Part shown: positions 24,028-27,437 of the stretch, one piece after another
Layout: every line of letters starts with the position of its first letter
How positions within the stretch are numbered: position 1 is the stretch's first letter
Origin: Dictyobacter vulcani
Lineage (GTDB): Bacteria; Chloroflexota; Ktedonobacteria; Ktedonobacterales; Ktedonobacteraceae
Assembly (NCBI RefSeq): GCF_008974265.1
Contig: NZ_BKZW01000001.1
Location: 4,092,001-4,156,000 of the forward strand
Reading direction: 5' to 3'
DNA: 64,000 bases
The notes under the pieces: model-generated
Told to the model about the DNA's origin: nothing
Database searches by the model: none
Seen by the model: only the letters and a program-made list of their open reading frames with translations
Program-made: the position numbers and the translations under genes

Positions 24028-24130
24028 ATTTGTAACTGATCCGCAGAGACTGGCGAAACGCTAAAAAAAAGTGTCTCCTATAAGAGAAGAAACCTCAAAA
24101 TTTTTCTCAGAAGGAGGACACCTTTCTAGT

Positions 24131-26128
24131 ATGACGCATTCGACCACCACCGTCCAGACGACTCCAGAGTCGCAACCTTCCACTCCCAATTGGATGGGAG
24201 AAGCGGCAGCTTTTGCTCAGAGCCTCACCCAGACGGGTATTCTCACGGCTATCACCCAACGAGTCCGCTTCGCGCGCGCCCGGATGGGGACCTACGATCT
24301 CATCGATTTTGTCGTGGTCCTCGTCGGCTACGCGCTTTCCGGTGAACCGACCTTGCAAGCCTTTTACGAGCGCCTTGTGCCGTTTGCCGACGAGTTCATG
24401 GCCTTCTTTGGCCGCCAGCGTTTGCCCTCGCGCTCCGCGCTCTCTCGCTTTTTGGCGGCGCTGGATCAGGCCAGCGTCGAAAACATGCGTACCCTCTTCC
24501 AGCAAGACGTGCAGGCCCGCACGTCGTTTCCTGATCCCGGCGGGATCATCGATCGGTGTGGGCAGAGCTGGCTGGTCGCGGATGTGGATGGCACCCGAAA
24601 GGTCGCTCGCCAACGCGCCTTGCCCCAGGCCGAGTCGCTGCCTGCTGCGCGCCGTCGCTTTGACCAGGTGTGCGCCAAAGGGTATCAGGGCCGCAAGCGC
24701 GGGGAAGTCGTACGCACCAGGACCGTGGTGCTCCAAGCTCATACCCATCAGTTTCTGGGAACCTTTGGAGGGTCGGGCAACGGCGATTACCGGGGCGAAC
24801 TGCTGCGAGCGATCCAGGTTCTGCTCGACTATGGAAAGCAGGTTGGTGTACCTGCCCAGCAGATCGTCATCCGCCTCGACGGCCTGTATGGCAATGCTGC
24901 TCCTCTCTGCGATGTCCTCACCTCGGGCCTGGCAGTGGTGGCCCGCCACAAGGATTACCACCTGCTGGATGTGGCGGAAATGCAGGCCGTGTTGGCTGCC
25001 GCTCCCGCTGCCACCTGTACGCACCCCGAAAGCCAGATGACCCGGACCCTGTTTGATTGTCCAGCCGTCCCGCTTTCCCCTACGGGGCCTCTGGTACGCG
25101 TGATCGTGGCGACCCATCCAGCCACCTCAGACCCTCCCTCCGTTGGGGAGCAGCGAGCGGAGACTGTCTACGAGCTCTTTGTTTCAACGCTGCCTTGCCC
25201 TGCCTTCAGCGCCAAAGATGTCCTGGATGTGTATCTGCATCGCGGTTCTTTTGAAACCGTGCTGGCGGATGAAGATGGTGAACAGGACGCTGACCGTTGG
25301 GTCTCTCACACGGCCTGGGGACAGGAATGCTTCCAGATCCTGGTTCAGTGGCTCTGGAACCTGCGGATGGAACTCGGCCTGCATCTGACTCCCGCAACAG
25401 TGCGCACGACCGAATTTGCTCCGGCTCACGCAGTTTTGCCAGTCGCTCTCAGTGAGCCAGCCGTTCCCAGTGGGTCAGCCGCTCCGGTAATCTATGGTCC
25501 TGCGCAGTGGGCCAAACGCTCGTTTACCGGCGGTTTTCCTGGCTCAGTGTTTACGCTGCAACCCGACGGTACCTTGCGCTGTCCCGCTGATCATCCGCTG
25601 TACGCGCAAGAGCGTCGACCCGAACATGATGGCTCTCTGCGTGTCTTGTATGCGGGCCGCATTGGCTTCTGTCGGGCTTGCCCCTTGCGCGAGCAGTGTC
25701 AAGAACATCCTTCCACCAAAAAACCACGCCGCGTCAGTGCCGTCTTCTGGCCTCTGCCTCCTGATCCGCTCTCTGCTCCTGCGGTGCCATCCTTGCCGCA
25801 TGTTCCCGTCGTGTCTCCGTCGGCTCCCTTGCTCTGGCGCGATTGGCCTCGTCGCTCTGTGCGCCGTCACTGGACCCAGCTCCTACGGCGAGAAACAGCC
25901 ACCTTTTCCTGGGAAGCTTGCCCTCAGTCCTCACAGCCAGCACATCCTCTGAAGCCAGACGAGACGCTGCTGACTCGCGAGCAGCGTGCTCATTATCGGC
26001 TCTCCTGGTCCCAGCGCCTCGCTCGCAATGCCCGTTCCGCTGATGCTCCCAGGCTCTCTGTTCTTTTACATGGCCTGCCCGTCCGCTTCTTCGAAACGTT
26101 TGGCCCTCCTGCTCAAGCCGTCGCGTAA
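24131..26128 (+). CDS. DDE transposase (IS4-like superfamily)
   Basis: The protein has 665 residues. Candidate catalytic residues are D151 or D153 (WLVADVDGTRK), D250 (VIRLDGLYGN) and E375 (HRGSFETVLADED), in RNase H-like context. A C-terminal Cys-rich segment (CPADHPLY ... GFCRACPLREQC, about 500-550) resembles the zinc region of IS1182-type transposases. The ATG at 24131 follows AAGGAGG with a wide spacer; an in-frame upstream extension exists but overlaps the left end. Precise IS family is not certain. It is probably active since the frame and both ends are intact. Confidence 0.88.
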   Translation: MTHSTTTVQTTPESQPSTPNWMGEAAAFAQSLTQTGILTAITQRVRFARARMGTYDLIDFVVVLVGYALSGEPTLQAFYERLVPFADEFMAFFGRQRLPSRSALSRFLAALDQASVENMRTLFQQDVQARTSFPDPGGIIDRCGQSWLVADVDGTRKVARQRALPQAESLPAARRRFDQVCAKGYQGRKRGEVVRTRTVVLQAHTHQFLGTFGGSGNGDYRGELLRAIQVLLDYGKQVGVPAQQIVIRLDGLYGNAAPLCDVLTSGLAVVARHKDYHLLDVAEMQAVLAAAPAATCTHPESQMTRTLFDCPAVPLSPTGPLVRVIVATHPATSDPPSVGEQRAETVYELFVSTLPCPAFSAKDVLDVYLHRGSFETVLADEDGEQDADRWVSHTAWGQECFQILVQWLWNLRMELGLHLTPATVRTTEFAPAHAVLPVALSEPAVPSGSAAPVIYGPAQWAKRSFTGGFPGSVFTLQPDGTLRCPADHPLYAQERRPEHDGSLRVLYAGRIGFCRACPLREQCQEHPSTKKPRRVSAVFWPLPPDPLSAPAVPSLPHVPVVSPSAPLLWRDWPRRSVRRHWTQLLRRETATFSWEACPQSSQPAHPLKPDETLLTREQRAHYRLSWSQRLARNARSADAPRLSVLLHGLPVRFFETFGPPAQAVA

Positions 26129-26342: not shown

Positions 26343-26694
26343 ACCCTGCTCGCCTCGGATCTCGTCAATGTCCCTCCTCCATTCCCAGGAAGATACTTTT
26401 AATATATCGAAAAACACTTATGTTATAACCGTTTGTGTAGTATAACATACTGTGCAAGATATTGATATTATGCGGAACACACTAAAAATGTGACGCATCT
26501 CATAGATTCATCTACCTTTACAATCTATAATTCCCCGAGTAAGAGATGCACGTAATACGAACGGCTTCTTTACCTAATAGTGCGAACTATCATGGCAAAA
26601 GCGTAACGCGTCGCAAATCGCTGTGGTTTAAAATCAAGCGGATAGACGGGTTTTTACTGGGCTTTAGCCCTTGATTGTTACATTTATTGCATTA
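26343..26694. other. Intergenic region with two inverted repeats
   Basis: No gene is supported. A 9-bp inverted repeat (26419-26427 and 26441-26449, TATGTTATA) looks like a possible operator. A second nested stem pairs 26495-26508 with 26522-26549 (GCATCTC/GAGATGC and ATAGATT/AATCTAT). Their roles are unknown. Confidence 0.4.
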
Positions 26695-27067
26695 TTGAAT
26701 TAGACTGGATAGGTGCAACGAAGGCACGACGGCACAGGCTGTACGGCCTTAGGAAGTGTTGCCAGGTAAAATCGTGCAAGAAAAGCCTCCCACTGATGCG
26801 TGCATCAGTTTTCGAAAGAGAAAGGTGTTCACCCTTTCCAGGTCGCCAAACACCAGACGTTGGCTGCACACCCGTCGGGTACGGCATGAAACGGTGAACG
26901 GGCATGGCACCGCCCTTTAAGCAAGCAGATGTGTAGATCTGTGCTTGAGCGTATTCCTCACCCACTACGGTTCTTCAACGAGTTGCCTCAACGAGGCACC
27001 GACTCAGAGAGCCGACTACGTAGGAGTACAAGAAGCCGCCGCCTCTTTAGGGCGTGCGGAGTGTCAC
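26695..27067 (+). ncRNA. Omega-RNA-like relic of an IS200/IS605 element (no tnpB)
   Basis: This 370-nt region is dense in local stems: GCACGA/TCGTGC (26721 to about 26775), ACTGATGC/GCATCAGT, GAAAGG/CCTTTC, CAAGCA/TGCTTG, TGCCTC/GAGGCA. It ends in a C-rich stem with a CTCTTTAG loop followed by AGTGTCAC, the layout of TnpB guide-RNA 3' ends. No tnpB or tnpA accompanies it. A 93-residue antisense frame over it is probably spurious. By analogy the guide would start at 27068. Identity as an omega RNA is inference from shape and the terminal motif. Confidence 0.4.
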
Positions 27068-27069
27068 AA

Positions 27070-27113
27070 CAAAAGTAAAGGAAATTAATCACAAAAGTAA
27101 AGGAAATTAATCA
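27070..27113. repeat. Tandem 22-bp duplication holding a ribosome site
   Basis: Two exact copies of a 22-bp unit (27070-27091, 27092-27113), each with AAAGGA, precede the ATG at 27115. The first begins directly after the omega-RNA-like end. Confidence 0.9.
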
Positions 27114-27114
27114 C

Positions 27115-27354
27115 ATGAGCAATTCAATGCAATCTAGCGCCGAAATCAATGCACAGGTGACCAGCGTCGAACTGAATGATCAGGAACTCGCCGAGGTCGT
27201 AGGTGCCTTTGGTGGTTGCTGCGAGACCGTTTTAGATGTTTGTTGCGGTACTGAACACCACCACCATGGTCACTTCTTCCATCACCACCACCGCCATCAC
27301 TTCCATAATAGCGATCCTTGCTGCGATCCCTGCTGCGATCCTTGCTGCTTCTAG
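27115..27354 (+). CDS. RiPP-like precursor: double-glycine leader with Cys/His-rich core
   Basis: The product has 79 residues. Residues 1-34 resemble a double-glycine leader (VELNDQELAEVVGAFGG, with acidic residues and a Gly-Gly end). The following 45 residues are a core with ten Cys in five CC pairs, twelve His in one His-rich block, and three DPCC repeats before a final Phe. Leaders of this type are removed by C39-family peptidase-transporters, and the core composition suggests metal binding or crosslinked cysteines. No modification enzyme or transporter gene adjoins it. The ATG is preceded by duplicated AAAGGA sites, and a strong terminator follows, so it is probably its own transcription unit. 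A metallothionein-like metal-storage peptide is the main alternative. Confidence 0.6.
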   Translation: MSNSMQSSAEINAQVTSVELNDQELAEVVGAFGGCCETVLDVCCGTEHHHHGHFFHHHHRHHFHNSDPCCDPCCDPCCF

Positions 27355-27387
27355 TTCGCTAAAAGCCAGCATAGCAGCAATTCTATA

Positions 27388-27437
27388 AAAAAGCCCCGGA
27401 CCTCCAACTACTTGATTGGGAGGTCCGGGGCTTTTTT
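27388..27437. terminator. Strong bidirectional terminator
   Basis: A stem of about 18 bp (AAAAAGCCCCGGACCTCC with its inverse) has a 12-13 nt loop and a T7 tail. It follows the Cys/His-rich peptide gene. Confidence 0.9.

What the first reader, a model, noticed from the sequence alone, without database searches (positions are those of the whole stretch)
27115..27354. Candidate RiPP or metal-binding peptide with Gly-Gly leader
The 79-residue product joins a leader like those of double-glycine peptides to a core with ten Cys in CC pairs and twelve clustered His, including three DPCC repeats. No known class that I recognise has this core, and no maturation genes adjoin, so it may be matured by enzymes in trans.
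Basis: partly seen in the sequence, partly recalled or inferred. Interest (0 to 1): 0.75.

Follow-up and report, generated by a model that had tools for sequence, protein, structure and literature searches.

The report
Orphan double-glycine-leader histidine-cysteine peptide gene
This small gene most likely makes an exported peptide packed with histidine and cysteine, one of a scattered family in related bacteria that keep a similar export tag but vary the rest of the peptide greatly, so it may belong to an unstudied extracellular, possibly metal-binding, material.

Summary
In detail: 27115-27354 encodes 79 residues, a double-glycine-type leader and a core with 10 Cys, 12 His and three DPCC repeats. 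A leader profile built without it finds this ORF alone in the window's six frames (E 3.6e-10; next best 1.4). It is not unique: the own and four same-genus genomes hold 43 leader matches at E<=1e-3, 29 of them with no C39 exporter or LanC-like gene within 10 kb. Most orphan cores are low-complexity (21 of 24). Against its closest leader relative found, the leader is kept (21/28) and the core largely replaced (15/37). In three relatives such peptides lie 1.1-1.6 kb from a C39 exporter without LanC nearby; this genome has four strong C39 matches. Best reading: exported and cleaved in trans after Gly-Ala, releasing a 48-residue His/Cys-rich peptide, perhaps metal-binding or cross-linking. Enzymatic modification is unsupported: 3 Ser/Thr, no MNIO enzyme in nine genomes, LanC and YcaO matches only on other contigs. 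Export, metal binding and role are inferred. New variant of a known kind.

The parts
27115..27354 (+). Precursor peptide gene, 79 aa, ATG to TAG
   Evidence: one full-length match in its genome
27115..27207 (+). Leader, residues 1-31, double-glycine type ending Gly-Ala (...VELNDQELAEVVGA)
27208..27351 (+). Core, residues 32-79: FGG, two CC pairs, His-rich stretch, three DPCC repeats
   Evidence: cleavage site inferred from the family alignment
27100..27106 (+). Shine-Dalgarno-like AAGGAAA, inside the second copy of a 22-base tandem repeat (27069-27112)
27387..27437 (.). Perfect 19-base inverted repeat with A and T tails: terminator-like on both strands
   Evidence: the scan did not list it (it allows loops of 3-8; this loop is 13)
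26593..27068 (.). About 475-base repeat, probably a non-autonomous IS200/IS605 derivative, directly upstream; context, not part of the peptide
   Evidence: 14 further copies of 91-96% identity in the genome, one of them only about 435 bases; its two ends flank Y1 transposase and TnpB-like ORFs in L186

Best explanation
It is an orphan precursor of a peptidase-ABC exporter (C39, LanT/PCAT type). Steps: (1) translated as 79 residues; (2) residues 1-31 are recognised by a C39 exporter encoded elsewhere in the genome; (3) cleavage after Gly30-Ala31; (4) the 48-residue core FGGCC...DPCCF leaves the cell; (5) outside, it binds soft or borderline metal ions with its CC pairs and His clusters, and/or cross-links, as one of a set of hypervariable low-complexity peptides that build or condition the cell surface or matrix. 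Shown here: leader homology, codon-level constraint on the leader, variable cores of a shared composition class, scattered genes, C39 exporters in the same genome, and linkage of sister peptides to C39 exporters in three relatives. Inferred: steps 1-5 as events, metal binding, matrix role. My odds: export by C39 about 0.75; no extensive enzymatic modification about 0.65; metal binding as a working property about 0.5; structural or matrix role about 0.3.
For: Leader profile without the window's row: E 3.6e-10, next best E 1.4. Leader match in its own genome E 7.9e-11 with a profile that contains it. Sister peptides lie 1116-1571 bases from a C39 match, with no LanC-like match within 10 kb, in G003 (two), G002 (one) and G004 (one); the G003 neighbour is Peptidase_C39 + ABC_membrane + ABC_tran. 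Own genome: four C39 matches at E<=2.2e-36. One of them (L150) is a stand-alone pair of a 194-aa ORF and a C39-ABC gene; the same pair occurs in five of five same-genus genomes (L150, L162, L163, L202, L203), beside a 1083-1109 aa RND-like and a TetR-like gene (names recalled) in four of them, in G004 beside other genes that L150 or L202 also have; a partial tree groups four of the five at 100/99; a permissive Gly-Gly scan of these loci printed no precursor. Pairs: leader 21/28, 24/35, 17/35, 17/35, 42/47, 40/47 identical; core 15/37, 17/37, 13/32, 11/36, 28/58, 34/60. Orphan cores (24): Ser 3.2%, Thr 0.6%; LanM/LanC-linked cores (14): Ser 12.0%, Thr 4.9%. The window's core ranks third of 62 in His+Cys share, 0.46. 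Precedent: C39-dependent Gly-Gly proteins EbfG1-4 are needed for biofilm (PMC4997328, passages) and EbfG1-3 form amyloid (PMC9981879, abstract).
Against: No exporter, immunity or metal-handling gene was recognised beside it (by reading). The transporter that would serve it is not identified. No expression, cleavage or metal data. The closest leader relative, in G004, has a different, Gly/Tyr-rich core with 2 Cys, so the His/Cys-rich composition itself is not conserved. Silent against replacing codon changes in the leader are 9:7 here, 14:5 and 13:7 in two other pairs, but only 11:11, 8:18 and 8:18 in the three pairs of the other orphan, so constraint there is weaker. It may be a recent arrival between mobile elements, and no promoter was established: the promoter-like matches (two on +, one on -; shuffles mean 1.7) lie at 26442-26494, upstream of the repeat element. 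The 13 training leaders came from searches with this peptide.
Confidence: 0.55

Rival explanations
1. RiPP precursor modified in trans, by one of the genome's LanM enzymes or by YcaO proteins acting on the Cys, then exported.
For: Three of ten family members scanned carry mersacidin/lichenicidin-family leaders (TIGR03898: 59, 57 and 37.6 bits against a cut-off of 23.5). The genome has a LanM-like gene, L146:10444-13713 with DUF4135 + LANC_like, further LANC_like matches and YcaO matches. Scattered precursors served by one enzyme are known for prochlorosins (recalled; the start of the abstract of PMC10783134 in the listing names a solitary promiscuous enzyme).
Against: The window peptide has no TIGR03898 match; 3 Ser/Thr only; orphan cores are poor in Ser/Thr; Ser/Thr-poor companions sit even inside LanM-linked loci (0 of 56 in L110, 1 of 78 in L085). 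The permissive Gly-Gly scan printed no leader near the YcaO pairs of L204.
Confidence: 0.2
2. Antimicrobial bacteriocin of the unmodified double-glycine kind, with fast-evolving cores driven by competition.
For: Leader type, core variability, and bacteriocin-type leader matches in relatives just below cut-off (TIGR01847 up to 15.5 against 15.7).
Against: No immunity-like gene shared across orphan loci was noticed (by reading ORF lists, not by a search); the low-complexity hydrophilic cores differ from the bacteriocin classes I recall.
Confidence: 0.1
3. Cytosolic metallothionein-like metal buffer; the leader resemblance is incidental.
For: 10 Cys and 12 His in 48 residues.
Against: The leader is the better-kept part and is shared with exporter-linked peptides; no metallothionein family listed by Pfam or NCBIfam at E<=10, though HMMER's filters drop most matches above 0.1; no homologue among solved structures: ten hits at E>=0.063, seven of them ending at the chain's C-terminus and so probably purification tags.
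Confidence: 0.07
4. Decaying or unexpressed gene carried to this site with mobile elements.
For: No such ORF at the site in G003 and G004; repeat element ending 46 bases upstream of the ATG; no promoter established.
Against: Intact frame, ribosome site, terminator-like repeat, silent changes in the leader.
Confidence: 0.08

Closest known systems
EbfG1-4 / PteB of Synechococcus elongatus (C39-exported double-glycine biofilm proteins)
   Same: Small proteins with GG or GA leader, C39 exporter, mature parts without homology elsewhere (PMC4997328, passages seen)
   Different: ebfG1-4 are one operon and the locus tag of ebfG4 (1134) adjoins that of PteB (1133); here most genes are scattered and cores are low-complexity His/Cys/Gly/Tyr
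Mersacidin/lichenicidin-family type 2 lanthipeptide precursors (TIGR03898)
   Same: Three of ten sister peptides scanned match the leader model above cut-off; Gly-Gly type leader
   Different: The window peptide does not match it and its core has 3 Ser/Thr
Prochlorosins (many precursors, one promiscuous LanM)
   Same: Conserved leader, hypervariable core, genes away from the enzyme (recalled; start of an abstract)
   Different: Nif11-type leader and Ser/Thr/Cys cores there (recalled); not here
Bufferins and other MNIO (DUF692) substrates
   Same: Cys-rich metal-related peptides (recalled)
   Different: No MNIO family match in the own genome or eight relatives
Ktedonobacter racemifer LanT Krac_11909
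   Different: Whether it is the orthologue was not tested

Membership tests
Double-glycine leader substrates of C39 peptidase-ABC exporters | Leader motif with conserved hydrophobic positions ending GG or GA | tested here: met
Double-glycine leader substrates of C39 peptidase-ABC exporters | A C39-ABC exporter in the same genome | tested here: met
   five matches, four strong, one weak with a stop inside
Double-glycine leader substrates of C39 peptidase-ABC exporters | Exporter genetically linked to the precursor (common, not obligatory) | tested here: not met
   none within 10 kb of the window gene; linked for sister peptides in G002, G003, G004
Double-glycine leader substrates of C39 peptidase-ABC exporters | Cleavage after the motif and export | not testable with these tools
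   needs biochemistry
Class II lanthipeptide (mersacidin family, TIGR03898) | Leader model above cut-off | tested here: not met
   three of ten sister peptides scanned do meet it
Class II lanthipeptide (mersacidin family, TIGR03898) | LanM nearby and Ser/Thr to dehydrate | tested here: not met
   no LanC-like match within 10 kb; 3 Ser/Thr in 48 residues
MNIO-modified metallopeptide (bufferin, methanobactin type) | MbnB/TglH/ChrH family enzyme in the genome | tested here: not met
   0 of 9 genomes, own included
YcaO-modified azole peptide | YcaO gene next to the precursor | tested here: not met
   four matches in the own genome, all on contig C4; the window is on C1
Metallothionein | Match to a metallothionein family | tested here: not met
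   at E<=10 (filters drop most matches above 0.1)
Metallothionein | Metal-thiolate cluster binding | not testable with these tools
   needs spectroscopy or ICP-MS

The most novel reading that the evidence does not exclude
The bacteria of this lineage run a dispersed secretome of disordered, silk- or beak-protein-like mini-proteins (Gly/Tyr/Trp, His clusters, Asp/Cys) that share one type of export tag and a few trans-acting C39 exporters, and that assemble, by metal-His/Cys coordination and aromatic stacking, into an extracellular material of hyphae or spores; selection keeps the tag and the composition class while sequence drifts freely. The window peptide would be a thiol- and imidazole-rich metal cross-linker of that material.
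Probability: 0.22. Interest if true: 0.82.

Novelty: new variant of a known kind. Interest (0 to 1): 0.57.

Why it matters
Double-glycine leaders are usually read as a sign of bacteriocins or lanthipeptides, and mining tools look for clusters (recalled). Here most precursors lie alone (29 of 43) and most orphan cores are low-complexity, metal-prone sequences (21 of 24). If export is shown, it would extend the C39 route to a lineage-wide set of structural or metal-handling mini-proteins, and it gives a testable case of leaders and cores evolving under separate rules. I saw no description of such a family in my literature searches (two searches returned no paper); of the papers listed I saw titles and starts of abstracts, and looked further only into passages, a section, an abstract or a term search of PMC6497799, PMC3951391, PMC13289182, PMC7268733 (no occurrence of my terms), PMC3140520, PMC4997328 and PMC9981879.

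Tried and rejected
A structured RNA upstream: Rfam gave no match at its gathering score; most of the upstream sequence proved to be a repeated mobile-element derivative. A relative in a named genome: the search for related loci gave one locus, a Mariniblastus MAG matched over residues 67-79 only, the DPCC repeat, taken as chance. Full-protein search of 201 genomes gives many low-complexity chance matches (85 of 201 at E<=1); it served as a source of leads: of 20 loci fetched, 10 showed a motif ORF at the lead, one of them (L046) doubtful; L045 was missed by that motif and found by the profile. MNIO route: no match in 9 genomes. PDB search: no homologue. A transporter tree was incomplete: 17 of 28 loci gave a sequence because the script read one strand only, and one of these was too short and left out (16 rows); I rest the conserved exporter mainly on gene order. 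Structure prediction was not run: I judged that a 48-residue low-complexity core would give a low-confidence model. Limits of the counts: the 62 cores come from loci fetched because of leader matches, after a motif filter, a length filter and removal of duplicates whose numbers were not printed; 36 of 62 fall in the low-complexity class by my thresholds, 21 of the 24 labelled orphan; the labels were assigned by locus by hand. The table was typed from the answers, without the three weak C39 matches and one weak partial LanC row in G000 and one in G004 and one further LanC piece in G004. G001 is in 260 contigs, so some of its four orphan calls may be contig ends.

Full report
What is there. The ORF at 27115-27354 encodes 79 residues, MSNSMQSSAEINAQVTSVELNDQELAEVVGA | FGGCCETVLDVCCGTEHHHHGHFFHHHHRHHFHNSDPCCDPCCDPCCF. 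The bar marks the processing site that the family alignment implies: G30-A31 stands where relatives mostly have GG or GA. A ribosome-binding-like AAGGAAA is 8 bases before the ATG and a perfect 19-base inverted repeat with A/T tails follows the gene.

The leader is not a chance resemblance. Fourteen leaders were aligned. With the window's own row left out, the profile scores the window ORF at E 3.6e-10; the next best six-frame ORF of the window has E 1.4. The training leaders had been found through searches started with this peptide, so this is strong but not fully independent support. That the leader type is a genuine one is supported by three sister peptides, of ten scanned, that match NCBIfam's mersacidin/lichenicidin leader model above its cut-off; the window peptide itself does not match that model.

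It belongs to a scattered family. With the leader profile, 22 of 31 genomes had a match at E<=10; the own genome had 12 (nine at E<0.005, three weak), the four same-genus genomes 11, 9, 28 and 23. Within these five genomes 43 matches reach E<=1e-3. Of these, 29 have no C39 or LanC-like match within 10 kb, 4 have C39 only (two in G003, one each in G002 and G004), 9 have both and 1 LanC only. With a second profile, 14 of 301 genomes of the phylum had a match at E<=1e-4, 12 of them in the window's own family (G003 and G004 were not in that sample). Six of those 12 belong to one genus (g13); the one member of that genus whose core I read (G016, L060) is not low-complexity, so the low-complexity kind is narrower than the leader.

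Cores. I collected 62 distinct cores from the fetched loci. Overall they hold Gly 26.7%, His 9.6%, Tyr 8.2%, Cys 6.9%, Trp 4.2% against 7.6, 2.6, 3.0, 1.2 and 1.2% in long open frames of the window, and are poor in Ala, Leu, Lys, Val, Ile and Thr. 36 of 62 meet my low-complexity thresholds, 21 of the 24 labelled orphan. The 24 orphan cores have Ser 3.2% and Thr 0.6%; 14 cores linked to LanM or LanC genes have Ser 12.0% and Thr 4.9%; 4 cores linked to C39 only have Ser 5.1% and Thr 0. The window core is third of 62 in His+Cys share (0.46). The family spans Gly-Tyr repeats, His tracts, Asp-Cys-His mixtures and CC or DPC motifs.

Leader and core evolve apart. Six pairs were compared: three among own L045, G004 L035 and G001 L156, which share neighbouring genes; two between G004 L034 and G003 L155, likewise; and the window against G004 L153, matched by leader, not by position. 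Leader identity is 24/35, 17/35, 17/35, 42/47, 40/47 and 21/28; core identity 17/37, 13/32, 11/36, 28/58, 34/60 and 15/37. Silent against replacing codon differences in the leader are 11:11, 8:18, 8:18, 14:5, 13:7 and 9:7; in the core 6:20, 6:19, 4:25, 16:30, 11:26 and 11:22. Low-complexity cores align loosely, so the core identities are, if anything, too high.

Export machinery. PF03412 finds five C39 matches in the own genome, four strong (E 6.2e-40 to 2.2e-36), one weak with a stop inside. NCBIfam's best name for the six exporters scanned is NHLM_micro_ABC1, below its cut-off in each. In G003, G002 and G004 a C39 match lies 1.1-1.6 kb from sister peptides with His/Tyr/Asp/Cys cores; in G003 and G002 a protein-kinase-domain gene follows the exporter. 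The own-genome exporter at C2:1062410 forms a pair with a 194-residue ORF that has no Pfam or NCBIfam match (I compare it to HlyD-type partners by recall). The same pair occurs in all five same-genus genomes, beside an RND-like and a TetR-like gene (recalled names) in four; in G004 these two are absent from the 17 kb read, while other neighbours are shared. A partial tree groups the exporters of G000, G001, G002 and G004 at 100/99. A permissive motif scan printed no Gly-Gly precursor near them. That is what an exporter serving distant precursors would look like; its substrates are not shown.

Maturation. LANC_like gives six matches in the own genome, on contigs C2, C3 and C4, YcaO four, on contig C4, MbnB_TglH_ChrH none in nine genomes. 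The window is on C1. The core has 3 Ser/Thr, and Ser/Thr-poor companions occur even in LanM-linked loci. Other enzyme families, such as radical SAM, were not searched. I therefore favour an unmodified or disulfide-bonded product, at about 0.65.

Site. In G003 and G004 the zinc-ribbon gene and the tsaE-like gene are neighbours and no such peptide frame of 60 or more codons was seen between them (for G004 only the + strand was printed). In the window the same neighbours are separated by a transposase-like ORF (24071-26128; no Pfam match; named by recall), the 475-base repeat (26593-27068) and the peptide. In G002 other genes lie upstream of tsaE and in G001 the contig ends there. The peptide gene was thus gained here or lost in the others; the closest leader relative in G004 is elsewhere (C2:1180989).

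Interpretation. The best-supported account is an orphan precursor exported and trimmed by a C39 exporter in trans, releasing a His/Cys-rich extracellular peptide. The closest working precedent is EbfG/PteB in Synechococcus, where Gly-Gly proteins need a C39 exporter and serve biofilm formation (PMC4997328, passages; PMC9981879, abstract). In Ktedonobacter racemifer a LanT homologue without any associated precursor has been noted (PMC3951391, section 40). Metal binding follows from composition only. In my literature searches I saw no description of this peptide family; I saw listings and passages only, and the library lacks most subscription journals.

Noticed in passing
window 26593-27068: About 475-base repeat with 14 further copies of 91-96% identity in the genome (a lower bound: 40 of 156 candidates were scored); its ends match the ends of an IS200/IS605-type element with Y1 transposase and a TnpB-like ORF at G000:C3:421332-423481 (81% and 71%), so it looks like a non-autonomous derivative.
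   Followed up: partly
window 27069-27112: Exact 22-base tandem duplication that begins at the end of the repeat element and carries the Shine-Dalgarno-like site twice.
   Followed up: no
L146:5920-13713 (G000:C2): Own-genome LanM/C39-ABC locus with a Ser/Thr/Cys-rich lanthipeptide-like precursor and a nearly Ser/Thr-free Gly/Tyr-rich companion with the same leader type.
   Followed up: partly
L036 and L159 (G004:C2, G003:C2): Tandem arrays of three and four Gly/Trp-rich, His- or Arg-bearing leader peptides; in L036 beside a gene that looks like hypF (recalled), and one such peptide at L145 in the own genome beside a similar gene.
   Followed up: no
L145:8234-8500 (G000:C3:322266): Leader peptide whose C-terminal third is Ala/Val/Ile/Thr-rich, unlike the family; it may be a drifted or broken copy.
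   Followed up: no
L204:6492-17884 (G000:C4): Two tandem pairs of about 680-710 aa YcaO-domain proteins, pairs also seen in relatives; the motif scan printed no leader peptide nearby.
   Followed up: no
L152 and L161: C39 exporter plus leader peptide followed by large protein-kinase-domain genes in both G003 and G002.
   Followed up: partly
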